Source: Henricia sp. BOLD:AAB3569 (taxonomy: Eukaryota; Echinodermata; Asteroidea; Spinulosida; Echinasteridae). From it: a stretch of 64,000 nucleotides of DNA. Below are positions 32,674-54,314 of the stretch, piece after piece; the stretch's first letter is position 1; each line of letters starts with the position of its first letter. The stretch spans positions 1-64,000 of the forward strand of contig JBBELK010000683.1 of the NCBI GenBank assembly GCA_037783545.1, given 5' to 3'. The notes below the pieces were generated by a model. That model had not been told where the DNA came from. It searched no databases and saw only the letters and a program-made list of their open reading frames with translations. The translations under genes were made by a program, and so were the position numbers.

Positions 32674-32701
32674 GGCTGTTCCGACACGGGGCGAAACAGC
32701 C
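32674..32701 (-). mobile_element. Type A terminal hairpin of an outer hairpin element
   Basis: Minus strand: GGCTGTTTCG...CGGAACAGCC, preceded by the linker TCGTTACGAAAACAAA (32702-32717) and an A run. It is the 3' end of an element whose body resumes at 35063-35185. The two parts are separated by the nested type D element. Confidence 0.65.
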
Positions 32702-32723
32702 TTTGTTTTCGTAACGATTTTTT

Positions 32724-35062
32724 TGCTTTTTCGCAACCTTTTGCGAAAAAGCTATTGTTTTCGTTCCGATTCTTGGCTTTTTCGCTAAGCGCGAAAAAGA
32801 CTTTGAAATCAGGTCTGATTTTTTTATTTGGCTTTCCGCAGCAGCTTTCTGAAGTTGAAAAATGGCCAAAACGCATTTTTAAGAGATGTCTGTGGCGAAG
32901 TTTTTGCAAATTGGCCCAAAATTGGTGCATATGTTCACCGAGGGTCACTGAACATGCCCATACCTTCAAAAGTCTGATGACGTCACCAGGTGTCAAATTA
33001 CACTCGGTTGAACATGCATTCTTTTAACAGCTATATCTAGAGAACGAAAAGGCCGATGAAGGTCAAATTTTGTGTTTTAGGTTTGTTGTGACTTGCTCTA
33101 ATGCATATTGTCAGCAAAACTTGGAGCGACACGATGACGTCATCAAATAAGCGCGCTTGTGCAGCATACATTAGCCAAGCATGCTCATTTTTGAAGTTAG
33201 ATTAAAGGGGCATGAAATTTTATGTTTTTCATATTCAAAAATTCATGACCTACGATCTTCATTCCTTCGGCATACAGGATCATTAATGAAGGTCTTTCAG
33301 ATGCCCACATGATTTGACCTTTGACCTCATTCCTATTAGTCAAACAGACTTTGCCTTGTAGTTTAAAAGTGTTAAGAGGTAGAGGGATGGGGTAAACTGT
33401 GTTACGGTATGCAAAAAATATGGCGTTGATCTCTGACCTTGCTCACTTCCGGTCGAAACCGGAAGTGCCCCCTAGTTAAAAAATGGTAAGAGGTATTGAG
33501 ATGGAGTCAATTAGCCTTTTTGAAGTATGGCGGACACAATAGGAGGGCGCACTTTGCAGTGGGTATAAAATCGACTAAAATGTAAAATAACTAAGTTTTT
33601 CACTTTACACTTATTAATTTTATTGATAATTCTGTCTATGTATTATAATTACAACATGTAAATCAAGTTTTTGGAAAGAAATACAATTGATAACAAAAAT
33701 CATACCCAAATGAAATTGCGCCCTCTCCTTTTGTTTCGCCATACTTCTAAAAGGCTAATGGTGTTAGTGTCACAGCCCATTATGCTTTCCAAAAATAAAA
33801 GATATGACGTCATCGTACGTAATAGCGCCCTCTAGCGACAAGATAAAAATTCCTCAAAACGTATTTTAAACAGATGTCTGTGGGGAAGTTTGTCTAAAAA
33901 TGGCCAAACTTGGTAAAGTGTGTATAACAAGACTTTAGGTCAGTACACATGCCTGTGGTGTGTCATACTTCAATGACGTCATCAAGTGGAATTTTACATG
34001 ATTTGAATTGTAAAAGTTGGATGACCTATATTTGCAGAACCCAACATCGGAAACAAATATAACTTCACAGGTATGTTGTCTGTGGTTAGCTTCGTAACAT
34101 ATTGTAATGACGTCACGATGACGTCATCGTGCGTCATATTACAATAGATTGAAAATTAAAGGTCAACATTTTAAAAAAATCAATAAAAAATCAGCATTTT
34201 AACATATGACCCTAATTGTTACGGTAACAGTCGCAGTTAACAATGATCTAAGTTTCGTACACAGACAATGACCTTTGATTTTGTTCACTTCCATTAGAAA
34301 CCGGAAGTGCACGTAAATGAACCTTTTGTTAAAAATGGTAAACGATGCAGAGATCGGGTTTATAATGTTAGTGTCCAGGGTGAATGGGGTTTCTAAAAAT
34401 GTAAGTGATGACGTCATCACTTGGAAGGGCGCCCTCTAGCGACGAAATTTAAAATGTCCAAAAATTTACTTCTATGGCTACGTTTGTGCAAATTAGCTCA
34501 ATATTAGTGATTGTAGAGCTGAATTAGTGCCAACCAACTTTGTATGGTCAAAACTTTAGTGACGTCACCGATCCTTTAAATACGGGGCATTAAAGGTAAC
34601 ATTTGGTATTTTTAAAGTTGAATAATTTGCTTGCTTTTGGAGTAGTGACGAAGTTCATTTTTCTCAGGCATGTTTCCAGCTACGAGGTCTGTGACATTTC
34701 ACAATATTATCATGATGACGTCATCAAGTGTCATATTACAATAAATTGAACATTAATGGTTTAAATCTTCGAAAATCAATACAAAATCAGCTCTTTAATT
34801 TTTGCAGTAACAGTAACAGCTAACCGAGATCTAAATTTCGTACACAGACAATGACCTTTGATTTTGTTCACTTCCGGTACAAAACCGGAAGTAGACAAAA
34901 ATGGACCTGTATTTGGAAAGTGGTTAGTAATGCAGAGATGCAGAGAGGTAACACATTAAAAGTAACAATTGCTAATTTTTCAAGGTAAGCATATTTTTGA
35001 CCTTTAAAAAAAAAATACCGAAAAAGCCATTCGATTTGTTCAGAAAACAGACGAACCTCTAG
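32724..35062 (-). mobile_element. Hairpin element type D, nested, tag GGCTTTTTCG
   Basis: On the minus strand the 5' end is CTAGAGG (35062-35056), then an imperfect stem-loop TTCGTCTGTT...AACAAATCGAA, then TGGCTTTTTCGG. At the other end are two hairpins with the same tag: GCTTTTTCGC...GCGAAAAAGC at 32724-32752 and CTTTTTCGC...GCGAAAAAGCC at 32775-32801. The body has repeated modules with TGACGTCATC, TTCCGGT...ACCGGAAGTG and CCTTTGACCT. It is inserted in the A-rich run of an outer type A element. It lies in PGRP intron 2 and has no coding frame. Confidence 0.6.
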
Positions 35063-35185
35063 TTTTTCTTCTTCCACCTTTTTCAGACGCTATTTCGGGC
35101 ACTTGCACATTCATGATCGACTTCACACTTTACATGGACAGTTTGATAGATTAAATATTAAAAATACAATAAAAAATCAAACCTT
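35063..35185 (-). mobile_element. Outer type A element, 3' body fragment
   Basis: Minus strand: CATGTAAAGTGTGAAGTCGA, TGTGCAAGTGCCCGAAATAG, then GGTGGAAGAAGAAAAA, immediately before the CTAGAGG of type D. The missing rest (linker and terminal hairpin) is at 32674-32717. It is truncated on the far side near 35185. Confidence 0.65.
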
Positions 35186-35401
35186 TGACCTAGGCTTTTT
35201 TTTCTTTAGTCCAAACATCCCTCTTGCCGACATGGATTTTTTTTTTAATTGTCGGTTTTAAGTGAATAAATTGCGAGCAAAAGTGCGCTTTTCGAAAATG
35301 AGAGCGCGATTTCTGAAACGTTCATTAGGTATTAATGATATGCGCGTGACCCCGTGACGCAATTATGAGAAAGAGAAAGAGAAGTCAACACGATTGTTAG
35401 A
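35186..35401 (+). repeat. Flank of the PolB remnant, shared with 24640-24860
   Basis: AGTCCAAACATCCCTCTTGC, GCAAAAGTGCGCTTTT and TATGCGCGTGACCCCGTGAC are the inverse of 24640-24860. It is the upstream portion of the same large element as the polymerase fragment. No clear coding frame. Confidence 0.7.
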
Positions 35402-35606
35402 CTGGTTCCCGTCCTCATATTTACTTCCCCTTCGTCGTATATGAGGACAAGTACACGCCGCCATGTTTGGCATAAATATCAAGGAATTCCTGGAGGTTTA
35501 TGCAAATTAACGGGGCTGTGTCACAGTCTGCGCAAGCGCCAAGCGCGCTTAGAATAATGTAGTGCAATTTCGAATAAAGCGTTGTGTTGAACGAAATTGC
35601 ACTACT
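35402..35606. mobile_element. Two small palindromes between PolB flank and PolB fragment
   Basis: GTCCTCATATTTACTTC / ATATGAGGAC (35412-35449) and TAGTGCAATTTCG / CGAAATTGCACTA (35560-35607) are inverted pairs. This stretch is absent from the related locus at 24.5 kb, so it is probably MITE material. Weak. Confidence 0.4.
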
Positions 35607-35996
35607 TTTGTGAGCCACAATTTCATTTTATTTTTCACAAAAAGATAACAATAAATTCTTGTCATAGTACAGAAAGTATTTTTCACGTTTGTAATTTGAA
35701 TTACAAGGACGAAACAGGCGTGATGAGCATACACTGTCAAGAAGACTGCAAATTTGCCATGGTCAACATGTACAGGACAAAGGCGACGCTCGATAAGCCA
35801 ATATACTGCGGAATGACGACATTGGACTCGTCGCAAATGCTGATGTACGACTTTTATTACAATCATTTAAAAACCACACTGTAAAAAATTGTGTTGTGTT
35901 ACAGTCGTTTTTCTGTTGAAAAAGTCACAAACGAACGCAAGTACAAAAATAACGTAAACCTGGTGTACACAGACACGGACAGTCTTATTTTAGAAA
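35607..35996 (+). pseudogene. DNA polymerase B fragment (Polinton/Maverick-like), 5' part
   Basis: The frame holds EPQFH, FHVCNLNYKDETG, YRTKATLDKPIYCGM and DSSQMLMYDFYYNHLK. After a stop near 35882 and a shift it reaches NLVYTDTDSLI at 35957-35990. The YTDTDS string is the palm motif C of B-family polymerases, and KPIYCGM...MYDFYYN is the usual segment just before it in protein-primed polymerases. The frame is cut at 35996 by CTAGA, the end of a mobile element. Its continuation is at 45173. The stop and frameshift mean the gene was already dead or decayed afterwards. Confidence 0.75.
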
Positions 35997-37815
35997 CTAG
36001 AGCTTGGCGTTTGTTTTTAAACATAAACATTGATCTTATGATGAAGTCACACTTTTAAAATGGTTGAAAACTTGAGTTGGTCGATGTTGCAAAAGAAACA
36101 TTCACATATCAATTGCCAGTATTGGAATTCTTAAGACATATGACTCTTTGATTATTATACGCTAAAATTTTAGTTTGTGTCTGATGACGTCATTATTGGC
36201 CCAGTCAATCTCACCATGACGTCACCACTGTGTGCACAAATTGCTCAAGGATCCACTGAAGAACAAGTTCTTACATGTGGTGAAATAATCTTTCGAATAT
36301 ATATTACAGTTCTCAAGATTTTGTCATTTGAGATCATATTACGTAACCACCGTGCACGTGATGACGTCATCATTGGTATAGTCATCAAGTCCACATGTGT
36401 TGGAACAATTCGTTCCGTAGAACTATGGTCATATTCCCTACCACTTTGGCTCTATTTGCATTAAAAATGCTAAAACCTGGCACATTCTCGATTAACTTCC
36501 GGTTTATACCGGAAGTAGGGGTCACACAAGGGTCATGTCATTGTATGATTTGTTTAGTTCATTTAGACCTATAATGCTGTGAAAGAATTGTTCAAGTATC
36601 TATTAGGGTTCTTGAGATATGAATTTTTGAAATAATAACCATTTAATTTTTGTAATTTGACACCTGTGATGATATCATGACGTCACAATGTTGTGCACAA
36701 ATTGTTCAACAATTTGATAAACATCAAGTTCTTAAATGTGGCGAAAGAATCATGCAAATATCTGCTGTAGTTCTCAAGATACAGCATTTTTAAACAATTC
36801 AGCTCCAAATTTGCGTATTTTAACACCATATTACGTAACCACCGTCCATGTGATGACGTCACCAATGGTATAGTAAAAAAGTCCACATGTGTGGAAACAT
36901 TTCGTTCCGTAGAAATATGGTCAAATTCACTACCACTTTGAATCTATTTGCATTCAAAACGCTTAAAAAATGCACATTTTGAACAACTTCCGGTTTGGAC
37001 CGGAAGTAGGCGTCACACAGGGGTCATGACATCGTATGATTTGTTTCAGTTCATTTAGACTTATTATGTTGTGAAAGAATTGTTCAAGTATCTATTACGG
37101 TTCTTGAGATATGAATTTTGGAAATAATAACCTTTTAATTTTTGTAATTTGACACCTGATGACGTCATGATTACGTCACACTTGATGCTATCATGATACT
37201 ATACATTCTGGTGAAAGTCTGCCGTAGGGCCTGTATCTAATTTACTAACGATTCAGCTTGGTTTGATGGGCATTGTTGCTGGTAAGTGTAAAAACTGAGA
37301 TTCTCAGTTTCATTGAACTTTGACCTCCAATTGACCCCAGAAGGAAGGGTCAGATGAAAATGCCCAATTACAAATATCTTGGGTGACGTGGTTTTCGAGA
37401 CGGAAGCATTTTAAAACATGCATATTTTGGTTATTTTTGAGATGTAATTTGATACTTGATGACGTCACGATGACGTCACACGTGATGCCATCATGACATT
37501 ATACATGCTGGTGAAAGTCTGCCATAGGACCTATGCCTGTACTTAGTTTCATAAAGATTCAGCATGGTTTGATGGACATTGCTGCTCAATAAGTGCAAAA
37601 ATTGAGGTTTTCGTTGAACTTTGACCTCAAATTGACCCCAGAAGGAAGGGTCAGATGAAAATGCCCACGAAGAAAATTGTTGGCCATGATCTGATCTATA
37701 AGCCTGCAAAATACGAAGATCATGGGTCACGTGGTTTTCCAGACGGAAGCATTTTAACATATGCATATTTTGGTAATTTTTGGCTTGTAATTTGATACCT
37801 GATGACGTCATTATG
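35997..37815 (+). mobile_element. Type B body, copy B
   Basis: Matches 19460-20690 and 23228-23490 in order, and has the empty site for the 2.5-kb transposon near 37195. It then repeats the GTGAAAGTCTGCC module a second time at about 37510. It carries many TGACGTCA and TTCCGG/CCGGAAG motifs. Confidence 0.8.
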
Positions 37816-37852
37816 ACGTCACACCTTCACATTGGGGTTGATGTTCCTACCA

Positions 37853-38450
37853 AGTTTCAAGTTGATAGTCCGGCAGCCAAGGAGAGTGACCCTTTTTTCT
37901 CTGATATAGTTTTTTTCTCTGCTGATTATTCATCTTTGGGGTGTATCTAATGGCTGAGGCTATAAGCCAGGCACTCCGTGCTTTCCCATCACAGCCCGTG
38001 TACGAACCCGTCATGGTTATGGAAGGAATGTACCCAATTGATGTACATCGTGTACGTGCAGGTGCATACACATCCACATTCGGGCCCTTGCAGCTGTGAA
38101 CTGTGCGATCCGCATTCGGGTCATGCATGGAGTGCCTGGCTTATAGCCTCTCCCTGTATCTAATGAGATCTAGGGTGGTGTGGACCTTTCACCCTTGAGC
38201 AATTTTAAATATTCAAAATGGCGTCCAAGATGGCTGTTGCGATGGACTAAAATAGGAAAATTCCAATTATGTCAGCGTTTTCTGCCACAAAGCAATGATG
38301 TTTTAACCAAAATTTATGTTTTGGGGTATGATGGATTTACTAAAAAGGGTTTGAGAAGTATTAAATGTACCGTTGCTATGGTAACTAGCCATATGGCAAC
38401 CATTGAGACTGTAAAAAGTGGTAAAATGACAAACTGCCATAAAGTCCAAG
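37853..38450 (+). repeat. Long inverted repeat, left arm
   Basis: CTGCTGATTATTCATCTTTG, TGAGATCTAGGGTGGTGTGG, TCCAAGATGGCTGTTGC, CGTTGCTATGGTAAC and GTGGTAAAATGACAAACTG recur inverted at 41480-41868. The arm is interrupted by the MITE at 37953-38156. Between the arms lie a SINE and a BEL/Pao fragment. Confidence 0.8.
37953..38156. mobile_element. 204-bp TIR MITE with 9-bp target duplication
   Basis: The inverted ends contain GAGGCTATAAGCCAGGCACT and AGTGCCTGGCTTATAGCCTC. TATCTAATG stands on both sides (37944-37952, 38157-38165), and the opposite arm (about 41757-41772) has the site once. A 9-bp duplication is typical of Mutator-like elements. Confidence 0.9.
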
Positions 38451-38458
38451 ATATATTG

Positions 38459-38655
38459 TGGGGTGTTATGGCCGAGCGGTCTAGTGCGTCGAACCTAAGT
38501 TCCTTTGCTAGTACTAGCATGTAGGTTCGAATCCGGGCCGCGACGGGTTGTGGCACCTGTGCCCTTAAGCAAGGCACTCAACCACACTTGCTCCCATTCC
38601 TGTGATTGGCGGTTCTCCGCTGTTGGATATGGTGAATAAATAAATAAATATATGA
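38459..38655 (+). mobile_element. tRNA-Leu-derived SINE
   Basis: The head GTTATGGCCGAGCGGTCTAG (A box) and AGGTTCGAATCCGG (B box) are followed by the body TGCCCTTAAGCAAGGCACTC, CTGTGATTGGCGGTTCTCC and GGTGAATAAATAAATA. It is the full-length reference for the other copies in this window. Confidence 0.85.
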
Positions 38656-38783
38656 ATTGAACATTCTTTGTATATCCTATGTACACTACTCAAAAGAATT
38701 AAAGGAACAAGAGAATATAATGTTTTTTGTCATGGTCTATATGGGCTACGGTTAGAACAAGAGGCATTAAAGTTATGTGAAAA

Positions 38784-41420
38784 TCATTCAGGAGTAACTC
38801 TTCCTTCAGGGAGATCGGCCATACGCTTAAACTGTGGTCGTCCATTCAACCTTCTGCAAACAAGACATCCTTTTAGAATCCGACTGATCAAAGGTCGTGG
38901 TTGAGGGATCCAATACTTCCTTCTCAGGAGGGACAGAACATGATCCTTGCCACTATGCCCAGCCAATGTCTGGTGAGTCTGTCTCACTAGAAGAAGCGAC
39001 ACATGGTGATTCTTGGGAAGAATTGCTTGAAACTTGTGCTCATCCCCAATCGGTGCAAGCCGAAGTCTATCACCAATCCTAAGTATGCCGGTGTCGTCAA
39101 GATGAGGACAAAGACTATGGACGGAGCTCTGTCGTCTGACGGAACGATCTCCATGCAAGTCTATGATTTCCTGCCGGAAGCTCCTTCCCTGCACATACTT
39201 TACAACTGCCGTCTCAGCAGCCTTAAGTTCACCGACAGTCAGACCTGATCCTTGTTCTTGTCGGTGGTTCTTGAGCCAGCTCTTGAAACGGAGGATCCAT
39301 GCCACAGCCTTCGTAAGGCGTAGCCAAGAGGAATATCTATTGATGAGCCCGTCAATTACATCAGGACTCTCATTAACATTCACAGCCCGTGAAACAGCTT
39401 GTTGCTTGACTTCTCGATCTATATCGAGGAGATTCCGCATTTCAGGCATTGGGGGCCAACTGCTTTCCTGTTTCCAGAGAAAATCAGGGCCTTTCTTCCA
39501 CCTATCACTGGAGACCATGTGGTTTGCATTAGGCCCACGTGAGGCGTCATCAGCTGGGTCAGCTTCAGTGTATACATGTCGCCACTGGTTAGGCGATGAA
39601 GCTCTGTGTATTTCTGCCACTCTATTGGCAACGAACGTATGGAATCTCTTGTCCAGATTTGTGAAATACTGAAGTACAAGCGTACTATCAGTCCAGAACA
39701 CTGACTCCTGCAGTTCTAACCCGAGCTCCCTCTTGAGCATCTCATCCATTCTCACAGCCACAACTGCGGCCGACAATTCCAGCCTTGGGATTGTCATTGT
39801 CTTTAATGGTGCAAGGCGCGACTTGCCCATCAAGAACGCGCAGTGGATGTTTCCCTTGGCATTGACTATGCGCAGGTAAGACACTGCACCGTAGCCATCT
39901 TGTGAAGCGTCTGCAAAATGATGCAGGCGGCATTCACAGATTTCCCCGAAGTCATCTGGGATGAGGCATCTCTTGAGGGAGAATCTACCTAAGAGTGGAA
40001 GGTCTTTTAGCCACCTTACCCACTCTTGCTGAGTGTCACTCTCCAGGGGGTCATCCCAGCCCTTCCCAACAATCCTGCACTCATTTTGAAAGAGCAATTT
40101 TGCCTTCAGGATGAATGGGCATACAAAACCGAGCGGGTCATATACTGAGCTGATCACGCTCAACAGACCTCTCCTGGTGTGACTCCTGGGGTCGATTTTT
40201 ATCTTGATCCCAAAGACAGTCCCCATTCATGTCCCAGTGCATTCCCAAAGCCCTCTCGATGGGCAGACGATCCTGATCCAAATCCAGATCATTGACGACC
40301 TTGGCTTTATCAGCTTGTGGTATAGCTGCTAAGACCTTCTTGCTGTTGCTCACCCATTTTGTCAACCGGAAACCGCCTTTAGCCAGCAGTTTTCCTTGAC
40401 TGCTTGTACCGTACTACTGGTGCCAAATTCCGCAGCATTGTCATCTGATGTGCGTCTTAAAGCAAAGCTTGCACAGCCTGGGCTCCACACGCCCCCAAAT
40501 AGATGGGCCGTCATGCGTAGCACCTGCTTTAGCGAGGTCTCCCTCAGGCCACCACAAGAATCTCAAAGCATCACAGTGTTCCTCTGTCACACGGACTTGA
40601 TGGAACATTTGTTCAATGTCCCCCATCAGGCCAACGCGCTTTTTCCGAAAACGCACGAGAACACCAACCAGCTTATTAGTCATGTCCGGCCCCTGTAGAA
40701 CTTAATTGTCATTTAGTGACACACCGTGAAACTTGGCCGCACAGCCAAACACAACCCTAAGCTTCTCTGTCTTATTGGGATTGCAGACACCATGGTGGGG
40801 AACGTACCATGTTTTACCAGGGGCGTGGTCAAGTTTCTCTACAGGGACCTTCTCAGCATAGCCTTTGTCGAGGAGACTACTGATTTCTTGGCGGTACCTC
40901 ATATGCAGGTCATGATTTTTGGATAACCGTTTTCCAAGGGACTGCAGTCGCTTGACCGCCATGAATGTATTGTCTGGTAGACCGGGAGGTTCAGACTTGA
41001 ATGGTACAGGCAGATGGTAGTGTCCATCCTTCAAACAGATCGACTCGTTCCAGGTGTCCACCACCCGTTTGTCATTAGCTGACATCTTGAGAGAGTCATC
41101 AGTTGCCTGAACAATCCTGAACAATCCTGTGTCCAACTTCCAAAACCGCTCAACCTGAGCTTCGAGACCACCTCGAACAAAGTTGGACACCGCACCTGAA
41201 TCACTCGAACACCCAAGGGGCCATTTATGGTCCATCCGAGAGGTGTTCTTACGGCATATGGCTCGCCTTCTTTCCCTCAGCGAACTTCAAGTGGCATGAG
41301 GGCCTGCGGTGCATCTTGGCCAATCAAGATCGTCACACCGCTCTCATCTACCTAGGGAACTGGGAGACACTTGATGTGATCACATGTCACCAGATTCTCG
41401 TAGGTTGCACAGCTATCCAA
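38784..41420 (-). pseudogene. BEL/Pao retrotransposon pol fragment
   Basis: Minus-strand order: end of the aspartic protease region (LIGQDAP...PLEVR), connection and reverse transcriptase (VVFGCAAKFHGVSLND, MGDIEQMFHQVRV, RFLWWPEGDL), RT tail ([14 protein letters not shown]), RNase H (HHFADASQDGYGAV, TIPRLELSAAV, FWTDSTLVLQYF, DPADDASRG) and the integrase zinc-binding domain (RQTHQTLAGHSGKDHV, CLVCRR). It is broken by an in-frame stop at 40702-40704, frameshifts near 40230-40440, loss of the segment with the YVDD active site, and truncation before the integrase core. No LTRs are seen. The longest surviving frame, RNase H plus zinc domain, is 480 codons. Confidence 0.9.
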
Positions 41421-41479
41421 TACATTGTGGCCATTAGTACATAAATGAACAACAATGCTCAAATAAACATTTAACTAGA

Positions 41480-41868
41480 AGTTTTTGACAGTTTGTCTTT
41501 TTTTTACCAATTTTTACCGCATTTTACCACTTTTTACTGCCATATTTCTTGTTACCATAGCAACGGTACATCCAATACTTCTCCAAACCTCCCTATCAAA
41601 ATTATTGTACCCCAAAACATATATCTGGGCCAAAAAAACATTGATCTGTTTGGAAATATGGGGAATTTTACAATTTTAGACCTTAGCGGGAGCCATCTTG
41701 GACGCCATCTTGAATATTTAAAATTGCTCAAGGGTGTCCGGTCCACACCACCCTAGATCTCATTAGATACACCCCAAAGATGAATAATCAGCAGAGAAAA
41801 AAACTATATCAGACATTTTAGGGTCAGGTGGAAATTTGGCCTTTGGCTGCCGGACTATGATAGCTTGA
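41480..41868 (-). repeat. Long inverted repeat, right arm
   Basis: Inverted partner of 37853-38450. It retains the empty site of the 9-bp-duplication MITE. Confidence 0.8.
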
Positions 41869-41899
41869 ACCGTTTTGAAGAAAAGCTCTGGAAATGTTT

Positions 41900-42037
41900 G
41901 AGTGGAAAAAAAAAAAAATGAAAAAAAAAAAAAAAAAAAGACAAAGAAATCGTACAATATCAATAGGTGATCGGAATGAGTTCCGATCACCTAAAAAAAA
42001 AAGACAAAGAAATCGTACAATATCAATAGGTGATCGG
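41900..42037 (+). mobile_element. GGTGATCGG hairpin array, left part (one and a half hairpins)
   Basis: After A runs come the linker GACAAAGAAATCGTACAATA, a complete hairpin AGGTGATCGG...CCGATCACCT (41965-41992), the linker again, and then only the left arm AGGTGATCGG (42028-42037). The duplicated segment starts in this arm. Confidence 0.9.
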
Positions 42038-42335
42038 CAGTTGGCGGGCATCGTCAACTACCTAGTCTTGATTCAAGACACCAGTACGGGCACGGCCATA
42101 AGCATAACAAAGCGCCCTCATGCTCTGCTTAGCACCGCTGTCAGTTGATGGCGCCCTGTTTACAGTCTGCTCTTAAAGGAGAAGATAAATAACGCTTGAA
42201 TTTCAGACTAACCAAGAAAAAATAACATGCTTCGTGCCAAAGAGGGCGATTTGCATCACATTACAATTTTTGAAGTTGCCGTCTATTAATTTTCATTGCC
42301 GATTCCGCGCGTAAATTGAACGCATTTTAACAAGC

Positions 42336-42575
42336 GGGGTGTTATGGCCGAGCGGATCTAGCGCGTCGAACTCAAGTTCCTGTGACAGTACTAGAATGTG
42401 GGTTCGATTCCAGAGCATTCTTTCATAAAGAGCAAGGGGAAGGAATTCCCCGGTGTCTCTGGCTGTTTCTAATTTAACTTAGAAGTTGATAGTTATTCGA
42501 ATATCTATGTTAATAATTGATCCCATTCCTGTAATTGGCGGTTCTTCCGCTGTTGGATGTGGTGAATAAATAAAC
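42336..42575 (+). mobile_element. tRNA-Leu-derived SINE (in duplicated segment, copy 1)
   Basis: GTTATGGCCGAGCGGATCTA and GGGTTCGATTCC are followed by CCAGAGCATTCTTTCATAAA, AGGAATTCCCCGGTGTCTC and GTAATTGGCGGTTCTTCCGC. Identical to 47757-47996. Confidence 0.85.
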
Positions 42576-42730
42576 AAGCATAAAACAGCAACCGCTTGAT
42601 GAATGTTTGCAACAAAAGTATTTTTGAAATCTATTCAGGCTTGTGTGTTGTGTAAAAGAGGTTTTAACTCAAAATAAAAATTCAAATTTTTCTCCCAAGT
42701 CGCTAATAATAATAATAATAATAATAATAA

Positions 42731-44852
42731 CTAGACCTGTGTTCGTTCTTGACAACGAACACATGGCTGTTCCCCTCCTTTTTATAAACATATATGGTGT
42801 TCGGGATGACCTTTGTTAGTGATCGTATATGAAGAAATCACGATCGTATGTCAAACGGTCGAGTTTTTATCGATTTTTAAATATCGAATTTTATTACATG
42901 CCCCTTTAATCTGACATGTAGGGAAGGTCAAAGGTGTTGATATATGTTTGGATACCCCACCCTAGTCGAAGTGTAACACAGTTGACCCCATCGTGATATA
43001 TTGTACCCCTTTCAAATGGCAAGGCAAAATCTGTTTGACCAATAGGAAACGAGGTCAAAGGTCAAGCCATGTGCGCATCTTAAAGACATTTGTTGGTGAT
43101 CGTATATGCAGAAGGAATCAAATTCGTAGGTTAAACGGTAGATTTGTTATTGATTTTCCAATATTTCATTACGTAATCATCTTGTCGCTAGAGGGCGCTA
43201 TTTCGTACGATGACGTCATCACTTATATTTTTGGAAAGCTTAAGGGCCTCTGGTAATAACACCATTGACCCCATCTCAATACCTCCTACCACTTTCAAAC
43301 TAAGGGCCACTTCCGGTTTCGACCGGAAATGAGCAAGGTCAAAGGTCACGACCATATTTTTGGGATACACCACCCTAGGTCCAAGTGTAATACAGTTGAC
43401 CACATGCAGATATCTTGTACCACTTTCAAATGGCAAGGCAAAATCTGTTAGACCAATAGGAAACGAGGTCAAAGGTCAAGGGGTGTGCGCATCTCAAAGA
43501 CCTTTGTTAGTCATCGTATATGCCGAAGGAATCAAGATCGTAGGTCAAACGGTTGATTTTTTTATTGATTGTTGAATATTTAATTTATTAAACTTCATAC
43601 CCCTTTAATCTGACACGTGATGACGTCATCATGACGTCATTAGTACTGTGCACAACTTCACATAGTGACCAATGTCCATGTGAAGTTTGAAGTCAATCAT
43701 CAATGTGCAAGTTTCCGAAATAGCGTCCGAAAAAAGTGGAAGAAGGAAAAGAAAAAAAACTAGACCTGTGTTCGTTCTTGACAACGAACACAAGGCTGTT
43801 CCCCTCCTTTTTATAAACATATATGGTGTTCGGGATGACCTTTGTTAGTGATCGCATATGAAGAAATCACGATCGTATGTCAAACGGTTGAGTTTTTATC
43901 GATTTTTAAATATCGAATATTATTACATGCCCCTTTAATCTGACATATAGGGAAGGTCAAAGGTGTTGCTATATGTTTGGATACCCCACCCTAGTCGAAG
44001 TGTAACACAGTTGACCCCATCCTTATATATTGTACCCCTTTCAAATCGCAAGGCAAAATCTGTTTGACCAATAGGAAACGAGGTCAAAGGTCAAGCCATG
44101 TGCGCATCTTAAAGACATTTGTTAGTGATCGTACATGCAGAAGGAATCAAATTCGTAGGTCAAACGGTAGATTTTTTATTGATTTTTGAATAATTAATTA
44201 CGTAATCATCTTGTCGCTAGAGGGCGCTATTTCGTACGATGACGTCATCACTTATATTTTTGGAAAGCTTAAGGGCCTCTGGTAATAACACCATTGACCC
44301 TATCTCAATACCTCCTTTCACTTTCAAACTAAGGGCCACTTCCGGTTTCGACCGGTTTCGACCGGAAGTGAGCAAGGTCAAAGGTCACGGCCATAATTTT
44401 TGGATACACCACCCAAGGTCCAAGTGTAATACAGTTGACCACATCCAGATATCTTGTACCACTTTCAAATGGCAAGGCGAAATCTGTTAGACCAATAGGA
44501 AACGAGGTCAAAGGTCAAGCCCTGTGCGCATCTTAAAGACATTTGTTAGTGATCGTATATGCCACAGGAATCAAGATCGTAGGTCAAACAGTTGATTTTT
44601 TATTGATTTTTGAATATTTAATTACGTAATCATCTTGTCGGTAGAGGGCGCTATTTCGTACGATGACGTCATCACTTATATTTTTGGAAAGCTTAAGGGC
44701 CTCTGGTAATAACACCATTGACCCCATCTCAATACCTCCTTTCACTTTCAAACTAAGGGCCACTTCCGGTTTCGACCGGAAGTGAGCAAGGTCAAAGGTC
44801 ACCAACATATTTTTTAGATACCGCACCCTAGTCGAAGTGTAACACAAGTGAC
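42731..44852 (+). mobile_element. Hairpin elements type A, tandem (copy 1 region)
   Basis: 5' ends CTAGACC at 42731 and 43760 are each followed by the stem-loop TGTGTTCGTT...AACGAACACA and the tag GGCTGTTCC. The body contains AGGTCAAAGGTCA, CGATGACGTCATCA and ACTTCCGG...CCGGAAGTG modules. The first starts right after an (AAT)n run, the second right after the A-rich 3' end of the first. Part of the duplicated segment. Confidence 0.75.
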
Positions 44853-45172
44853 CTAAAAAAAAAAGACAAAGAAATCGTACAATATCAATAGGTGATCGGG
44901 ATCAGCCCGATCACCTAAAAAAAAAGACAAAGAAATCGTACAATACCAATAGGTGATCGGGATCAGCCCGATCACCTAAACAAAAAAAAGACAAAGAAAT
45001 CGTACAATAGTAATAGGTGATCGGGATCAGCCCGATCACCTAAAAAAAAAAAAAGACAAAGAAATCGTACAATAGTAATAGGTGATCGGAATCAGTTCCG
45101 ATCACCTAAAAAAAAAAAGACAAAGAAATCGTACAATATCAATAGGTGATCGGAATCAGTTCCGATCACCTA
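44853..45172 (+). mobile_element. GGTGATCGG hairpin array, right part (five hairpins)
   Basis: Five hairpins at about 44890, 44951, 45015, 45080 and 45144, separated by A runs and the linker GACAAAGAAATCGTACAAT. The period is about 62 bp. The first three close with GGG/CCC next to the loop and the last two with GGAA/TTCC, a paired change that keeps the stem. The last one ends at the junction with PolB. Confidence 0.95.
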
Positions 45173-45363
45173 ATTAAAACGGACGCCGTATACGCGGACA
45201 TGGACAAGTATAAGCACCTATACGACTTTCCAAATTACCCAGAGGACCACCAGATGTATGACAAAACCAATAAAAAGGTCATAGGCAAATTTAAAGACGA
45301 GACCGCGGGTCAACAAATTATAGAGGCGGTGTGCAGGTTATCGAATCCATAGGCCTCATAGAC
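45173..45363 (+). pseudogene. DNA polymerase B fragment, 3' part
   Basis: The frame opens immediately after the last hairpin and contains TDAVYADMDKYKHLYDFPNY, PEDHQMYDKTNKKVIGKFKD and E. This is the segment that follows the YTDTDS motif in Polinton-type polymerases (D.YPKDHPLY...NKK..GKFKDE). It ends with a stop and decayed sequence, so the C-terminus is missing. Its frame is in phase with the part ending at 35996. Confidence 0.75.
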
Positions 45364-47057: not shown

Positions 47058-47082
47058 GTAAACATTTATTATTTTTTTGTTT

Positions 47083-47141: not shown

Positions 47142-47453
47142 TGCACGACATAAGACCAAGTGACTTCCCCTACCGCACCTTAAATTAGGGGAAGCCCCCA
47201 GTAGGGGTCATCGGCCGCGCGGTCGTGACACTTATTATTGGTCAAATCTGTAACCGAAGTTCGCAAGCTTGATTGACCGCTGCGTGAAATTGCACTGTAA
47301 ATCATGCCTCCTTTTGTTTCTGTCATTTAATCTGTCAGGCTGATTTCTTTTTGGTGCAGGTCTAATGGGGCTGGTTTTCTTTATATCTGTGTCAAATATC
47401 ATACAAGTCCATCTTTGCAGTGGTGAGATTTTCCGCCCCAAAATATCACCAAA
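47142..47453. other. Intron after PGRP exon 3
   Basis: A small hairpin (CTTCCCCTA...TTAGGGGAAG) lies at about 47166-47192. No exon that would finish the PGRP domain was found here. Confidence 0.5.
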
Positions 47454-50400
47454 ATCGGCAGTTGGCGGGCATCGTCAACTACCTAGTCTTGATTCAAGAC
47501 ACCAGTACGGGCACGGCCATAAGCATAACAAAGCGCCCTCATGCTCTGCTTAGCACCGCTGTCAGTTGATGGCGCCCTGTTTACAGTCTGCTCTTAAAGG
47601 AGAAGATAAATAACGCTTGAATTTCAGACTAACCAAGAAAAAATAACATGCTTCGTGCCAAAGAGGGCGATTTGCATCACATTACAATTTTTGAAGTTGC
47701 CGTCTATTAATTTTCATTGCCGATTCCGCGCGTAAATTGGACGCATTTTAACAAGCGGGGTGTTATGGCCGAGCGGATCTAGCGCGTCGAACTCAAGTTC
47801 CTGTGACAGTACTAGAATGTGGGTTCGATTCCAGAGCATTCTTTCATAAAGAGCAAGGGGAAGGAATTCCCCGGTGTCTCTGGCTGTTTCTAATTTAACT
47901 TAGAAGTTGATAGTTATTCGAATATCTATGTTAATAATTGATCCCATTCCTGTAATTGGCGGTTCTTCCGCTGTTGGATGTGGTGAATAAATAAACAAGC
48001 ATAAAACAGCAACCGCTTGATGAATGTTTGCAACAAAAGTATTTTTGAAATCTATTCAGGCTTGTGTGTTGTGTAAAAGAGGTTTTAACTCAAAATAAAA
48101 ATTCAAATTTTTCTCCCAAGTCGCTAATAATAATAATAATAATAATAATAACTAGACCTGTGTTCGTTCTTGACAACGAACACATGGCTGTTCCCCTCCT
48201 TTTTATAAACATATATGGTGTTCGGGATGACCTTTGTTAGTGATCGTATATGAAGAAATCACGATCGTATGTCAAACGGTCGAGTTTTTATCGATTTTTA
48301 AATATCGAATTTTATTACATGCCCCTTTAATCTGACATGTAGGGAAGGTCAAAGGTGTTGATATATGTTTGGATACCCCACCCTAGTCGAAGTGTAACAC
48401 AGTTGACCCCATCGTGATATATTGTACCCCTTTCAAATGGCAAGGCAAAATCTGTTTGACCAATAGGAAACGAGGTCAAAGGTCAAGCCATGTGCGCATC
48501 TTAAAGACATTTGTTGGTGATCGTATATGCAGAAGGAATCAAATTCGTAGGTTAAACGGTAGATTTGTTATTGATTTTCCAATATTTCATTACGTAATCA
48601 TCTTGTCGCTAGAGGGCGCTATTTCGTACGATGACGTCATCACTTATATTTTTGGAAAGCTTAAGGGCCTCTGGTAATAACACCATTGACCCCATCTCAA
48701 TACCTCCTACCACTTTCAAACTAAGGGCCACTTCCGGTTTCGACCGGAAATGAGCAAGGTCAAAGGTCACGACCATATTTTTGGGATACACCACCCTAGG
48801 TCCAAGTGTAATACAGTTGACCACATGCAGATATCTTGTACCACTTTCAAATGGCAAGGCAAAATCTGTTAGACCAATAGGAAACGAGGTCAAAGGTCAA
48901 GGGGTGTGCGCATCTCAAAGACCTTTGTTAGTCATCGTATATGCCGAAGGAATCAAGATCGTAGGTCAAACGGTTGATTTTTTTATTGATTGTTGAATAT
49001 TTAATTTATTAAACTTCATACCCCTTTAATCTGACACGTGATGACGTCATCATGACGTCATTAGTACTGTGCACAACTTCACATAGTGACCAATGTCCAT
49101 GTGAAGTTTGAAGTCAATCATCAATGTGCAAGTTTCCGAAATAGCGTCCGAAAAAAGTGGAAGAAGGAAAAGAAAAAAAACTAGACCTGTGTTCGTTCTT
49201 GACAACGAACACAAGGCTGTTCCCCTCCTTTTTATAAACATATATGGTGTTCGGGATGACCTTTGTTAGTGATCGCATATGAAGAAATCACGATCGTATG
49301 TCAAACGGTTGAGTTTTTATCGATTTTTAAATATCGAATATTATTACATGCCCCTTTAATCTGACATATAGGGAAGGTCAAAGGTGTTGCTATATGTTTG
49401 GATACCCCACCCTAGTCGAAGTGTAACACAGTTGACCCCATCCTTATATATTGTACCCCTTTCAAATCGCAAGGCAAAATCTGTTTGACCAATAGGAAAC
49501 GAGGTCAAAGGTCAAGCCATGTGCGCATCTTAAAGACATTTGTTAGTGATCGTACATGCAGAAGGAATCAAATTCGTAGGTCAAACGGTAGATTTTTTAT
49601 TGATTTTTGAATATTTAATTACGTAATCATCTTGTCGCTAGAGGGCGCTATTTCGTACGATGACGTCATCACTTATATTTTTGGAAAGCTTAAGGGCCTC
49701 TGGTAATAACACCATTGACCCTATCTCAATACCTCCTTTCACTTTCAAACTAAGGGCCACTTCCGGTTTCGACCGGTTTCGACCGGAAGTGAGCAAGGTC
49801 AAAGGTCACGGCCATAATTTTTGGATACACCACCCAAGGTCCAAGTGTAATACAGTTGACCACATCCAGATATCTTGTACCACTTTCAAATGGCAAGGCG
49901 AAATCTGTTAGACCAATAGGAAACGAGGTCAAAGGTCAAGCCCTGTGCGCATCTTAAAGACATTTGTTAGTGATCGTATATGCCACAGGAATCAAGATCG
50001 TAGGTCAAACAGTTGATTTTTTATTGATTTTTGAATATTTAATTACGTAATCATCTTGTCGGTAGAGGGCGCTATTTCGTACGATGACGTCATCACTTAT
50101 ATTTTTGGAAAGCTTAAGGGCCTCTGGTAATAACACCATTGACCCCATCTCAATACCTCCTACCACTTTCAAACTAAGGGCCACTTCCGGTTTCGACCGG
50201 AAATGAGCAAGGTCAAAGGTCACGACCATATTTTTGGGATACACCACCCTAGGTCCAAGTGTAATACAGTTGACCACATGCAGATATCTTGTACCACTTT
50301 CAAATGGCAAGGCAAAATCTGTTAGACCAATAGGAAACGAGGTCAAAGGTCAAGGGGTGTGCGCATCTCAAAGACCTTTGTTAGTCATCGTATATGCCGA

Positions 50401-51726
50401 AGGAATCAAGATCGTAGGTCAAACGGTTGATTTTTTTATTGATTGTTGAATATTTAATTTATTAAACTTCATACCCCTTTAATCTGACACGTGATGACGT
50501 CATCATGACGTCATTAGTACTGTGCACAACTTCACATAGTGACCAATGTCCATGTGAAGTTTGAAGTCAATCATCAATGTGCAAGTTTCCGAAATAGCGT
50601 CCGAAAAAAGTGGAAGAAGGAAAAGAAAAAAAACTAGACCTGTGTTCGTTCTTGACAACGAACACAAGGCTGTTCCCCTCCTTTTTATAAACATATATGG
50701 TGTTCGGGATGACCTTTGTTAGTGATCGCATATGAAGAAATCACGATCGTATGTCAAACGGTTGAGTTTTTATCGATTTTTAAATATCGAATATTATTAC
50801 ATGCCCCTTTAATCTGACATATAGGGAAGGTCAAAGGTGTTGCTATATGTTTGGATACCCCACCCTAGTCGAAGTGTAACACAGTTGACCCCATCCTTAT
50901 ATATTGTACCCCTTTCAAATCGCAAGGCAAAATCTGTTTGACCAATAGGAAACGAGGTCAAAGGTCAAGCCATGTGCGCATCTTAAAGACATTTGTTAGT
51001 GATCGTACATGCAGAAGGAATCAAATTCGTAGGTCAAACGGTAGATTTTTTATTGATTTTTGAATATTTAATTACGTAATCATCTTGTCGCTAGAGGGCG
51101 CTATTTCGTACGATGACGTCATCACTTATATTTTTGGAAAGCTTAAGGGCCTCTGGTAATAACACCATTGACCCTATCTCAATACCTCCTTTCACTTTCA
51201 AACTAAGGGCCACTTCCGGTTTCGACCGGTTTCGACCGGAAGTGAGCAAGGTCAAAGGTCACGGCCATAATTTTTGGATACACCACCCAAGGTCCAAGTG
51301 TAATACAGTTGACCACATCCAGATATCTTGTACCACTTTCAAATGGCAAGGCGAAATCTGTTAGACCAATAGGAAACGAGGTCAAAGGTCAAGCCCTGTG
51401 CGCATCTTAAAGACATTTGTTAGTGATCGTATATGCCACAGGAATCAAGATCGTAGGTCAAACAGTTGATTTTTTATTGATTTTTGAATATTTAATTACG
51501 TAATCATCTTGTCGGTAGAGGGCGCTATTTCGTACGATGACGTCATCACTTATATTTTTGGAAAGCTTAAGGGCCTCTGGTAATAACACCATTGACCCCA
51601 TCTCAATACCTCCTTTCACTTTCAAACTAAGGGCCACTTCCGGTTTCGACCGGAAGTGAGCAAGGTCAAAGGTCACCAACATATTTTTTAGATACCCCAC
51701 CCTAGTCGAAGTGTAACACAAGTGAC
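47454..51726 (+). repeat. Source-like copy of the duplicated segment (4.3 kb)
   Basis: Matches 42033-44852 with one extra 1,453-bp unit. Its left flank is ordinary intronic sequence and its right end continues into further family body, while the other copy is bounded by hairpin arrays. That makes this the likely parent copy. It includes a SINE at 47757-47996. Confidence 0.85.
47757..47996 (+). mobile_element. tRNA-Leu-derived SINE (copy 2 of 42336-42575)
   Basis: Same sequence as the SINE at 42336. It was duplicated with the segment and is not an independent insertion. Confidence 0.85.
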
Positions 51727-52079
51727 TTTGTCCAAATATCTTGCACCACTTTCAAATGGCAAGGCAAAATCTGTTTGACCAATAGGAAACGAGGTCCAAG
51801 GTCAAGGGGTGTGCGCATCTCAAAGACCCTTGTTAGTCATCGTATATGGCGAAGGAATCAAGATCGTAGGTCAACCGGTTGATTTTTTAATGATTTTTGA
51901 ATATTTAATTTATTAAACTTCATGCCTCTTTAATCTGACACGTGATGATGTCATCATGACGTCATTAGTACTGTGCACAACTTCACATAGTGACCAATGT
52001 CCATGTGAAGTTTGAAGTCAATCATGAAAGTGCAAGTGCCCGAAATAGCGTCTGAAAAAAGTAGAAGAAGAAAAAGAGA
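48152..52079 (+). mobile_element. Head-to-tail array of type A hairpin elements
   Basis: 5' ends CTAGACC lie at 48152, 49181 and 50634 (spacing 1,029 and 1,453 bp). The second and third units are identical as far as I compared them. Each 3' end is AGTGGAAGAAGGAAAAG plus an A run that touches the next CTAGA. Terminal GGCTGTTCC hairpins are absent between units and appear only at the far end (53559). The body has AGGTCAAAGGTCA, TGACGTCA and TTCCGGTTTCGACCGGAA modules. No protein is encoded. Confidence 0.8.
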
Positions 52080-52630
52080 TGCACAGCCAACAAGCAAAAT
52101 ACGTATTTTCCCGTTTCCTCGCAGTGCACAGTCAATAGGCATTTTGCCTGTGTACAAACAAAATACGTATTTTCCCGTTTCCTCGAAGTACACAGTCAAT
52201 GGGCATCGCCCGTGTACAAGCAAAATACGTATTTGCATGTTTCCTCGAAGTGCACAGTCAATATGCCATTGCCTGTGTACAAGCAAAATACTTAGTTTCC
52301 CGTTTCCTCGCAGTGCACAGTCAATAGGCCATTGCCTGTGTACAAACAAATTACGTATTTTCCCGTTTCCTCGAAGTACACAGTCAATGGGCATTGCCTG
52401 TGTACAAGCAAAATACGTATTTTCATGTTTCCTCGATGTGCACAGTCAATAGGCCATTGCCTGTGTACAAGCAAAATACTTAGTTTCCCGTTTCCTCGCA
52501 GTACACAGTCAATAGGCCATTGCCTGTGTACAACCAAAATACGTATTTTCATGTTTCCTCGAAGTGCACAGTCAATAGGCCATTGCTTGTGTACAAGTGA
52601 AATACTCAATTTCGCGTTTCCCTATTAGTA
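52080..52630 (+). repeat. Cassette array, about 62-bp unit with GTRCACAG/CTGTGTAC stems
   Basis: About nine units: the stem GTGCACAG or GTACACAG, about 14 bases, the stem CTGTGTAC, then the linker AAGCAAAATACGTATTTTCC and CGTTTCCTCG. It sits exactly where the terminal hairpin of a type A element is expected, after GTAGAAGAAGAAAAAGAG. Open frames on both strands reflect the repeat. Confidence 0.85.
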
Positions 52631-53586
52631 GTGCACAGTCTATATAGCCCATTCCGATTTCAACCGGACGTGAGCAAGGTCAAAGGTCACCGCCATATTT
52701 TTTGGATACCCCACCCTAGTCGAAGTGTAATACAGTTGACCACATGCAGATATCTTGTACCACTTTCAAATGGAAAGGCAAAATCTGTTAGACCAATAGG
52801 AAACGAGGTCAATGGTCAAGCCCTGTGCGCATCTTAAAGACATTTGTTAGTGATCGTATATGCCACAGGAATCAAGATCGTAGGTCAAACAGTTGATTTT
52901 TTATTGATTTTTGAATATTTAATTACGTAATCATCTTGTCGCTAGAGGGCGCTATTTCGTACGATGACGTCATCACTTATATTTTTGGAAAGCTTAAGGG
53001 CCTCTGGTAATAACACCATTGACCCCATCTCAATACCTCCTTTCACTTTCAAACTAAGGGCCACTTCCGGTTTCGACCGGAAGTGAGCAAGGTCAAAGGT
53101 CACCAACATATTTTTTAGATACCCCACCCTAGTCGAAGTGTAACACAAGTGACTTTGTCCAAATATCTTGCACCACTTTCAAATGGAAAGGCAAAATCTG
53201 TTTGACCAATAGGAAACGAGGTCAAAGGTCAAGGCGTGTGCGCATCTTAAAGACTTCTGTTAGTCATCGTATATGGCGAAGGAATCAAGATCGTAGGTCA
53301 AACGGTTGAATTTTTATTGATTTTTGAATATTTAATTTATTAAACTTCATACCCCTTTAATCTGACACGTGATGACGTCATCATGACGTCATTAGTACTG
53401 TGCACAACTTCACATAGTGACCAATGTCCATGTGAAGTTTGAAGTCAATCATCAATGTGCAAGTGCCCGAAATAGCGTCCGAAAAAAGTGGAAGGAAAAA
53501 AAAAAGAAGGAAAAAAAAAAAAAACAAAACAAAACAAAACAATCGTAACGAAAACAAAGGCTGTTCCAACTCGAGTCGGAACAGCC
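52631..53586 (+). mobile_element. Type A element, 5'-truncated, with terminal hairpin
   Basis: The body resumes at about 52640 (CCGATTTCAACCGGACGTGA) and runs to GTGGAAGGAAAAAA, the linker TCGTAACGAAAACAAA, and the hairpin GGCTGTTCC...GGAACAGCC at 53559-53586. This is the clearest complete 3' end of the family in this window. Confidence 0.75.
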
Positions 53587-53602
53587 AAAAAAAAAAAAAA
53601 AC

Positions 53603-54262
53603 CTAGAGGTATTGTGTTTATAAATAAACACAAAGCTTTTCCGCATAAAGATTACGGATGTTTAGGGTCAAAGGTCACGATAGTAATGTTTGCAAATCTT
53701 GGAAAACCACGGACTGTCACTTTGATCACAGGTAAAGAAGCACACCAATTTGTTGATTTTAAAATAGATATATATATAATTGTTGAAATGCTTGACCTTT
53801 AAAGGAAAGATGACGTCATGTATGTTTTGACTACACAAACATGTTTGGTGGTTAACATGGTCTATAATCATATATGATTAGCTATTTTACATAAACTTTG
53901 CCTGAGAACATTATTTCAGAACATTTCGAACTTCGTCGCTAGAGGGCGCCCTTCCAAGTGATGACGTCATTTACGGTTGATTTTTTATAAATGTTTGAAT
54001 ATGGAAAACATTAAATTTCATGCCCCTTTAACCCGACACCTGATGACGTCATAATGACGTATTTGTTTTAGGACCGTCCTTACAATATGATCTTTATTCA
54101 TACCAAGTTTCATTGTTATCAGAATTGAGGAACATATTGAAAAAGTGAGCCGAACGGTTTATGTGCATTGTTAATGGTACTTCCGGGTTAGAAGATGGAA
54201 AAAAAAAAAAAAAAAAATCCGGACAAAAACAATACCTTTTCCGCAGGATTTGCGGAAAAGCT
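53603..54262 (+). mobile_element. Hairpin element type C, 660 bp, both ends present
   Basis: The 5' end CTAGAGGTA is followed by the stem-loop TTGTGTTTAT...ATAAACACAA and the tag AGCTTTTCCGC (53634-53644). The 3' end is an A run, CCGGACAAAAACAATA, and the hairpin CTTTTCCGC...GCGGAAAAG (54236-54260). The body has TGACGTCA motifs and a CTAGAGGGCGCCC string. It lies between two type A hairpins, in the A run that normally precedes the linker, so it is a nested insertion. Confidence 0.7.
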
Positions 54263-54314
54263 AAAAAAAATCGTAACGAAAACAAAGGCTGTTCCAACTC
54301 GAGTCGGAACAGCC
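54263..54314 (+). mobile_element. Second type A terminal hairpin
   Basis: The A run, the linker TCGTAACGAAAACAAA and the hairpin GGCTGTTCC...GGAACAGCC (54287-54314) end directly at the 3' tail of the retrotransposon that follows. Confidence 0.8.

What the first reader, a model, noticed from the sequence alone, without database searches (positions are those of the whole stretch)
32674..54314. Hairpin-ended mobile family with subfamily-specific matching end tags
Seen: 5' ends share CTAGA, then a stem-loop, then a roughly 9-10-bp tag. 3' ends share an A run, a linker like TCGTAACGAAAACAAA, and a terminal hairpin. The tag at the 5' end reappears as the 3' hairpin arm in four different versions: GGCTGTTCC (42731, 43760, 48152, 49181, 50634 with 53559, 54287, 18841), GGTGATCGG (19460 with 41965 and 44890-45172), GCTTTTCCGC (53634 with 54236), and GGCTTTTTCG (35062 with 32724 and 32775). 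The context is conserved while the tag changes at both ends together, which implies a recognition system that pairs the two ends. Established: Helentron/HINE (DINE-like) elements have subterminal inverted repeats and a 3' stem-loop. Inference: this is a Helitron-superfamily relative, or an undescribed element class, with swappable end tags.
Basis: partly seen in the sequence, partly recalled or inferred. Interest (0 to 1): 0.9.

Follow-up and report, generated by a model that had tools for sequence, protein, structure and literature searches.

The report
Helentron family with matching end tags

Summary
Copies carry a 9-12 bp tag at one end that recurs as an arm of a hairpin at the other, in four versions. 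Genome-wide, of 202 listed starts on contigs C1-C47, 82 have a listed hairpin end within 6 kb, and in 77 of these 82 the nearest has the same tag. Read on the other strand, the anatomy is that of Helitron2/Helentron elements and their non-autonomous HINEs: a 5' terminal hairpin built on the inverted repeat (ATIR/subTIR), a 3' ATIR just before a 3' hairpin, and insertion in T-runs. One empty-site comparison inside the window supports this. The genome carries long RepHel + endonuclease + OTU frames, and exact-tag ends lie 10-15.7 kb upstream of Rep hits at three loci. Bao & Jurka (2013) already described ATIRs, compensatory changes in them, a pairing model for ending replication, and inverted RepHel genes. 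So this is a new member of a known kind. Notable are its scale, several ATIR versions in one genome, and nested arrays.

The parts
18841..18880 (-).
19460..19504 (+).
32674..32724 (-). GGCTGTTCC hairpin, linker and T-run of an outer copy, interrupted by the next element
32725..35062 (-). GGCTTTTTCG copy (two stacked tag hairpins at 32725 and 32775; CTAGA end at 35062) inserted in the T-run of the outer GGCTGTTCC copy
35997..45172 (+). GGTGATCGG-family copy with degraded CTAGA end; hairpins at 41964 and 44889-45172 (5 tandem units); carries further insertions; seems to sit inside a PolB-like frame (frame read by eye, no call)
42731..44856 (+). two GGCTGTTCC copies in series (starts 42731 and 43760); the second starts in the A-run of the first
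48152..53586 (+). GGCTGTTCC copies in series (starts 48152, 49181, 50634), tag hairpin at 53559-53586
53603..54261 (+). complete copy of about 658 bp with tag GCTTTTCCGC at both ends, inserted between a GGCTGTTCC hairpin's A-run and a second GGCTGTTCC hairpin unit
54262..54314 (+). second GGCTGTTCC linker + hairpin unit

Best explanation
The elements are non-autonomous Helentrons (HINEs, Helitron2 group), read on the opposite strand. A RepHel-endonuclease from autonomous Helentrons in the same genome is inferred to nick at the 5' hairpin, peel one strand by rolling-circle replication, stop at the 3' end where the 3' ATIR pairs with the 5' ATIR and opens the 5' hairpin (the Bao & Jurka endpoint model), and insert the single strand between Ts in a T-run. 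Shown here: the anatomy, tag agreement genome-wide, insertion in T-runs, and RepHelEN frames at similar distances from the same ends at a few loci. Inferred: the nicking, pairing and endpoint steps, and which autonomous group drives which tag.
For: Anatomy. Both terminal hairpins fold better than shuffles: 0 of 200 shuffles as good for 7 of 8 sequences, 1 of 200 for the eighth. Where the two arms of the tag hairpin differ (54236 and 32775), the tag matches the outer, terminal arm (12 and 10 bp), as an inverted ATIR should (read). The other end has a hairpin 7-10 nt before ..CTAG, which fits a Helitron 3' end. Tag agreement: 77 of 82 nearest pairs, from 202 starts of which 120 had no listed end within 6 kb; collapsed to clusters 40 of 44, against a shuffled mean of 13.8 and maximum of 25 in 10,000 shuffles. 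Flanks: AA before 38 of 39 starts, AA after 33 of 35 hairpin ends, i.e. Ts on the Helitron2 strand. Empty site: the flanks of 32725-35062 align side by side (query 0-49 and 50-128) to the uninterrupted copy at 18841. Partner: of the 100 listed of 218 exact GGCTTTTTCG starts, 5 lie 5-16 kb upstream of a Rep hit on the same strand: C43 (10,260; 10,859; 15,720 bp, two Rep hits), C139 (11,763) and C203 (14,413); shift-control mean 0.053, maximum 2 of 57 shifts; flipped strand 0. Non-GGCTG hairpins lie 14,752 bp downstream of Rep at C43. Two frames read hold PF14214, PIF1, Exo_endo_phos and OTU. Rep-locus identity between C657 and the C43/C139 copies is 95-98%.
Against: Of 24 long-frame Rep hits on contigs C1-C230, 4 have a listed start 5-16 kb upstream: 3 exact GGCTTTTTCG (C43 twice, C139) and 1 GGTGATCGG (C3, whose list reaches only C58 and whose control is mean 0.123, maximum 4); the C203 Rep is a weaker row outside the 24. 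No Rep lies within 30 kb of the 100 listed GGCTGTTCC or 99 listed GCTTTTCCGC starts. One Rep (C129:552844) has a GGCTTTTTCG start 23.4 kb upstream and a GGTGATCGG hairpin 17.7 kb downstream, so its ends do not match as listed. Seen from the hairpin side on C1-C19, 42 of 48 GGCTGTTCC and 10 of 13 GGTGATCGG hairpins have a same-tag start as the nearest, but only 2 of 42 of the non-GGCTG class (2 a GGTGATCGG start, 38 none) and 1 of 6 GCTTTTCCGC. ATIR identity is 9-10 bp in two of four tags, below the 11 bp rule of Thomas 2014 though inside the 8-15 bp of Bao & Jurka. The Rep frame runs opposite to the usual Helitron2 orientation (published for a minority).
Confidence: 0.93

Rival explanations
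1. An undescribed element class with its own recombinase, only converging on Helentron-like ends.
For: No autonomous copy was read from end to end; no Rep lies within 30 kb of the listed GGCTGTTCC or GCTTTTCCGC starts.
Against: The Helitron2 end features tested are met, insertion in T-runs is seen, and exact-tag starts lie upstream of Rep hits far above the shift control.
Confidence: 0.04
2. The tag match is shared ancestry only: the few families each inherited a fixed pair of ends, with no functional need for the two ends to match.
For: Within the GGCTGTTCC copies read the tag hardly varies, so many copies count as few independent events; only four tag versions were tested.
Against: Four unlike tags sit in similar context, each matched across the two ends, and the match is to the terminal arm where the hairpin arms differ. 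Compensatory changes in another pair of Helitron2 elements are on record.
Confidence: 0.15
3. Stacks of tag hairpins and series of CTAGA starts are rolling-circle concatemers or unequal-crossover arrays, not nested insertions.
For: End counts do not always balance: 3 starts and 1 hairpin at C3:507819, 5 and 2 in the window; the five same-tag units at 44889-45172 have no matching set of starts; one of the two hairpins at 32725/32775 has no partner start; a satellite of about 655-bp units exists on C8.
Against: 23 of 39 starts sit in the A-run of another copy's tail (the script says 24, one is miscalled on reading); arrays of 13/12 and 6/7 ends; cross-family nesting at 32674-35160 with side-by-side flanks.
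Confidence: 0.3

Closest known systems
Helitron2 group (Bao & Jurka 2013, PMC3627910; passages seen; authors' names recalled)
   Same: 8-15 bp ATIRs, 5' ATIR in a 5' terminal hairpin, 3' ATIR just upstream of a 3' hairpin, compensatory ATIR changes, insertion after Ts in the examples, RepHel inverted in some members
   Different: Four ATIR versions with similar context in one genome; 3' end ..CTAG; the candidate partner frames also carry an endonuclease
Helentron / HINE (Thomas et al. 2014, PMC4067079; passages seen)
   Same: palindromic subTIRs, 3' stem-loop, T-rich insertion sites without duplication, RepHel + endonuclease, OTU proteases, non-autonomous copies in excess, families defined by subTIR
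   Different: subTIR match 9-12 bp here against 12-15 bp in the mite; Rep frame in the minority orientation (as in Helentron-Da-40)
Cg_HINE of Pacific oyster (Vojvoda Zeljko et al. 2020, PMC7492417; passages seen)
   Same: several HINE elements in one genome, each with its own subTIR, the complementary repeat beside the left subTIR, a palindrome after the right one, tandem central repeats, links to satellite DNA
   Different: 11-12 bp subTIRs and a microsatellite in the left module; the authors could not relate any autonomous Helentron to them
FoHeli1/2 of Fusarium oxysporum (PMC5148889; passages seen)
   Same: hairpins at both ends, inverted repeat inside the hairpins, repeats asymmetric
   Different: TCAG/ATTTT ends, insertion between TNAT and T; no endonuclease found in fungal Helitrons there
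Canonical Helitron (Helitron1; features as quoted)
   Same: 3' end fits CTRR (here CTAG) with a hairpin shortly before it
   Different: no 5' TC, a 5' terminal hairpin with ATIR, insertion among Ts and not between A and T

Membership tests
Helitron2/Helentron (HINE) | Short inverted repeats at both ends, placed asymmetrically (8-15 bp, 0-4 nt from the 5' end; subterminal at the 3' end) | tested here: met
   four tags, 9-12 bp, terminal arm at one end, about 35 nt inside the CTAG end at the other (read)
Helitron2/Helentron (HINE) | 5' hairpin that contains the ATIR, and a second hairpin near the 3' end | tested here: met
   folds (5' hairpins of four tags, 3' ends of three); the 3' hairpin of the GGCTTTTTCG copy in the window is imperfect
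Helitron2/Helentron (HINE) | Insertion among Ts, no target duplication | tested here: met
   AA flanks at 38 of 39 and 33 of 35 ends; one empty site in the window, T numbers in the run not comparable
Helentron | RepHel protein with C-terminal endonuclease (often OTU) present in the genome | tested here: met
   PF14214, PIF1, Exo_endo_phos, OTU in the C657 and C457 frames, the two that were read
Helentron | That protein lies between these same ends | tested here: inconclusive
   coordinates only: C43, C139, C203 with exact tag, C258 with <=3 mismatches, one C43 3' stack; against: C129 mixed ends, none for two tags
Helentron family rule of Thomas 2014 | at least 11 bp identical subTIRs | tested here: inconclusive
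   11-12 bp for GGTGATCGG and GCTTTTCCGC, 9-10 bp for GGCTGTTCC and GGCTTTTTCG (read)
Canonical Helitron (Helitron1) | 3' CTRR with a hairpin shortly before it | tested here: met
   ..CTAG with the hairpin 7-10 nt before the end
Canonical Helitron (Helitron1) | 5' TC, A|T insertion, no 5' hairpin | tested here: not met
   5' end is the ATIR hairpin, flanked by Ts on both sides

The most novel reading that the evidence does not exclude
One genome runs several parallel Helentron 'address' systems: each ATIR version is served by its own RepHelEN lineage, related elements change address by replacing the ATIR at both ends while the rest of the terminus stays alike, and the 5'-hairpin/3'-ATIR pairing is the lock that decides where replication ends.
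Probability: 0.25. Interest if true: 0.6.

Novelty: new member of a known kind. Interest (0 to 1): 0.33.

Why it matters
As a kind it is known. Its use is as a natural experiment: four ATIR versions with similar surroundings, thousands of matched ends and long open RepHelEN frames sit in one genome. That makes the 2013 proposal, that pairing of the two ATIRs sets the end of rolling-circle replication, directly testable by swapping tags. It also shows that reading HINEs on the wrong strand makes a published subTIR look like a new end-pairing code.

Tried and rejected
Rfam on the window: nothing at gathering score. ARAGORN: no tRNA, although the repeat near 42340/47760 looks like a tRNA-derived SINE by eye. 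Scan of 30 Rep loci with about 1.5-kb flanks for these ends: only chance-like CTAGA hits, none with a known tag. Scan of 20 kb at C457 and 19 kb at C657: no such ends; later coordinates put the ends outside what was fetched. Eight downstream stretches of other autonomous elements: no hairpin with arms of 9 bp or more, and for the closest pair (C54/C457) the likeness ran to the edge of the stretch. Strict last-in first-out matching of starts and hairpins in arrays: counts are suggestive (13/12, 6/7) but other arrays are unbalanced (7/5, 3/1, 2/1, 5/2; some are cut by the edge of the fetched DNA) and start types do not map cleanly on hairpin types, so no claim is built on it. A first fuzzy scan timed out and a second used too loose a threshold; one search replaces both.

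Limits of the lists: a listing shows at most the first 100 places, so the co-location work uses 100 (or 99) places per list and not all hits; one search used contigs C1-C47 only (and the GGCTGTTCC start list ends at C19). The label GGCTTTTTCG for the 3' list is presumptive: the pattern is 'linker, then not G at the fifth base', only two matched strings were shown (one GGCTTTTTCG, one not), its control is 95 against 952, and 38 of its 42 places on C1-C19 have no listed start within 6 kb. Off-diagonal pairs within 6 kb: GGCTTTTTCG start to GGTGATCGG hairpin 7 (control mean 0.16), of which 6 lie on contigs past the end of the list; GGCTTTTTCG start to GCTTTTCCGC hairpin 2 (control 0.07), both at C671, also past it; GGTGATCGG start to non-GGCTG hairpin 6 (control 0.14). 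The 5 mismatched pairs are GGTGATCGG starts with a non-GGCTG hairpin 4.9-6.0 kb on; two (C9, C40:2350408) have a GGCTTTTTCG start in between, which fits nesting, and three are unexplained. In some searches only 93 of the 150 Rep rows were used; one search used all 150.

Full report
What was checked. Seven of nine CTAGA + hairpin candidates have a tag matching a 3' hairpin arm over 9 bp; 239 of 200,000 random positions do, real tags included. So the pattern is real.

Orientation. Read on the other strand, every part has a name. The tag hairpin is the Helitron2 5' terminal hairpin, with the 5' ATIR as its outer arm. The T-rich linker follows. Then come the 3' hairpin and, 7-10 nt on, the end ..CTAG, which also fits the CTRR end of canonical Helitrons. 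Bao & Jurka 2013 (PMC3627910, passages seen) give this plan for Helitron2: ATIRs of 8-15 bp, the 5' ATIR in a hairpin 0-2 bp from the end, and the 3' ATIR upstream of the 3' hairpin. They report compensatory changes in two related elements, propose that ATIR pairing opens the 5' hairpin and sets the replication endpoint, and note RepHel genes in opposite orientation in some elements. Thomas 2014 (PMC4067079, passages seen) gives a like plan for Helentrons and HINEs, with T-rich insertion sites, endonuclease, OTU proteases and one minus-oriented Rep. In two window copies the two arms of the tag hairpin differ; there the tag matches the terminal arm (12 bp at 54236, 10 bp at 32775; read), as an inverted repeat should. 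Of the eight terminal sequences folded, seven beat all 200 shuffles and one beat 199.

Do the tags agree genome-wide? Letters of the genome were limited, so coordinates were used. Lists of up to 100 places were made for four 5' tags and four 3' classes. On contigs C1-C47 these hold 202 starts; 120 have no listed hairpin end within 6 kb downstream on the same strand, 82 do, and in 77 of the 82 the nearest one has the same tag. Collapsed to one per 30-kb cluster it is 40 of 44, against a shuffled mean of 13.8 and a maximum of 25 in 10,000. Over the full lists 53 of 100 (GGCTGTTCC), 12 of 100 (GGCTTTTTCG), 22 of 99 (GCTTTTCCGC) and 17 of 100 (GGTGATCGG) starts have a same-class hairpin within 6 kb, against shift-control means of 0.30, 0.02, 0.00 and 0.09. 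Three off-diagonal cells are also above control: GGCTTTTTCG to GGTGATCGG 7, GGCTTTTTCG to GCTTTTCCGC 2, GGTGATCGG to non-GGCTG 6. Most fit list ends or nesting; three of the five mismatched pairs stay unexplained. Seen from the hairpin side on C1-C19 the nearest start has the same tag for 42 of 48, 10 of 13, 1 of 6 and only 2 of 42 hairpins (GGCTGTTCC, GGTGATCGG, GCTTTTCCGC, non-GGCTG), so the non-GGCTG class, labelled GGCTTTTTCG by presumption, is poorly resolved.

Insertion. Flanks are AA before 38 of 39 starts and AA after 33 of 35 hairpin ends, which is T..T on the Helitron2 strand. Inside the window the GGCTTTTTCG element 32725-35062 interrupts a GGCTGTTCC copy. Its flanks align to positions 0-49 and 50-128 of the uninterrupted copy at 18841, meeting inside the T-run. 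No loss or duplication shows outside that run; the number of Ts and of CTT steps in the run differs a little between the copies and cannot be scored. In 23 of 39 cases a start lies in the A-run of another copy's tail (24 by script, one miscalled) and in 7 just behind a hairpin. This explains many of the series of starts and stacks of hairpins as nested insertion: 13 starts and 12 hairpins at C1:554742, 6 and 7 at C2:325388. Others are less balanced: 7 and 5 at C2:362784, 3 and 1 at C3:507819, 2 and 1 at C3:693109, 5 and 2 in the window, with 1 and 1 at C1:850903 (some are cut by the edge of the fetched DNA). The five same-tag units at 44889-45172 look like local amplification.

Partner. PF14214 finds 150 Rep hits, many in open frames of more than 3000 codons. 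Two frames were read: both have DUF6570, Helitron_like_N, PIF1, Exo_endo_phos and OTU, and both carry the stretch PHTHC, which fits an HUH motif (motif recalled). Of 100 listed exact GGCTTTTTCG starts (of 218) five lie 5-16 kb upstream of a Rep hit on the same strand: 10,260, 10,859 and 15,720 bp at C43 (two Rep hits), 11,763 at C139 and 14,413 at C203, against a shift-control mean of 0.053 (maximum 2 in 57) and none on the flipped strand. C258 is a further place with <=3 mismatches. For GGTGATCGG one start lies 14.6 kb upstream of Rep at C3 (control mean 0.123, maximum 4), and hairpins lie 14.0-18.1 kb downstream at C129, C181 and C219 (control mean 0.053, maximum 2). C129 has a GGCTTTTTCG start upstream (23.4 kb) and so does not match. 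At C43 two stacked non-GGCTG hairpins lie 14.8 kb downstream of Rep, which suggests an element of about 25 kb. The Rep frame runs towards the tag hairpin, opposite to most Helitron2. No Rep lies within 30 kb of the listed starts of the two other tags.

Verdict. This is a Helentron/HINE clan: known in kind, well populated, and a good test bed for the ATIR endpoint idea. I score it as a new member of a known kind. Novelty rests on the five paper searches made, which listed 30 of 85, 20 of 227, 6 of 6, 12 of 20 and 10 of 21 papers of an open-licence library, so descriptions in Repbase or subscription journals may exist. The Helraiser and wheat Helitron papers were seen as search listings only.

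Noticed in passing
G000 C8:40569-105517 (at least; the list was cut there): Satellite of roughly 655-bp units, most with a related linker and hairpin arm (GCTGTTTCGG); a further tag version and a link from HINE to satellite DNA.
   Followed up: partly
G000 C457:968371-988370 (L039, L040): A 4074-codon stop-to-stop RepHelEN frame with OTU, a Herpes_teg_N-like and a Bactofilin-like stretch.
   Followed up: partly
G000 contigs C159, C585, C898, C1007, C708: A second group of Helitron_like_N hits in short frames, many with stops, clustered on a few contigs.
   Followed up: no
window 35930-45360: PolB-like protein sequence on both sides of the GGTGATCGG-family element, read by eye; a Polinton/Maverick-like host element is likely.
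   Followed up: no
window about 42030-44850 and 47460-50200: Large near-identical duplication that includes a tRNA-like SINE with a TAA tail, into which a GGCTGTTCC copy is inserted (by eye).
   Followed up: no
window 38784-40223 (-) and 54438-57627 (-): Pao-type retrotransposon fragment, and endonuclease and reverse transcriptase frames of a non-LTR retrotransposon kind.
   Followed up: partly
window 28979-29833: 53-bp tandem repeat, 16 copies, 99% matches, open in several frames.
   Followed up: no
C2:363168-363330, minus strand (in L062): Stack of four hairpins with three different arms (GGTGATCGG, GGCTTTTT, TTTCGCT) within about 165 bp, suggesting at least one more tag version.
   Followed up: no
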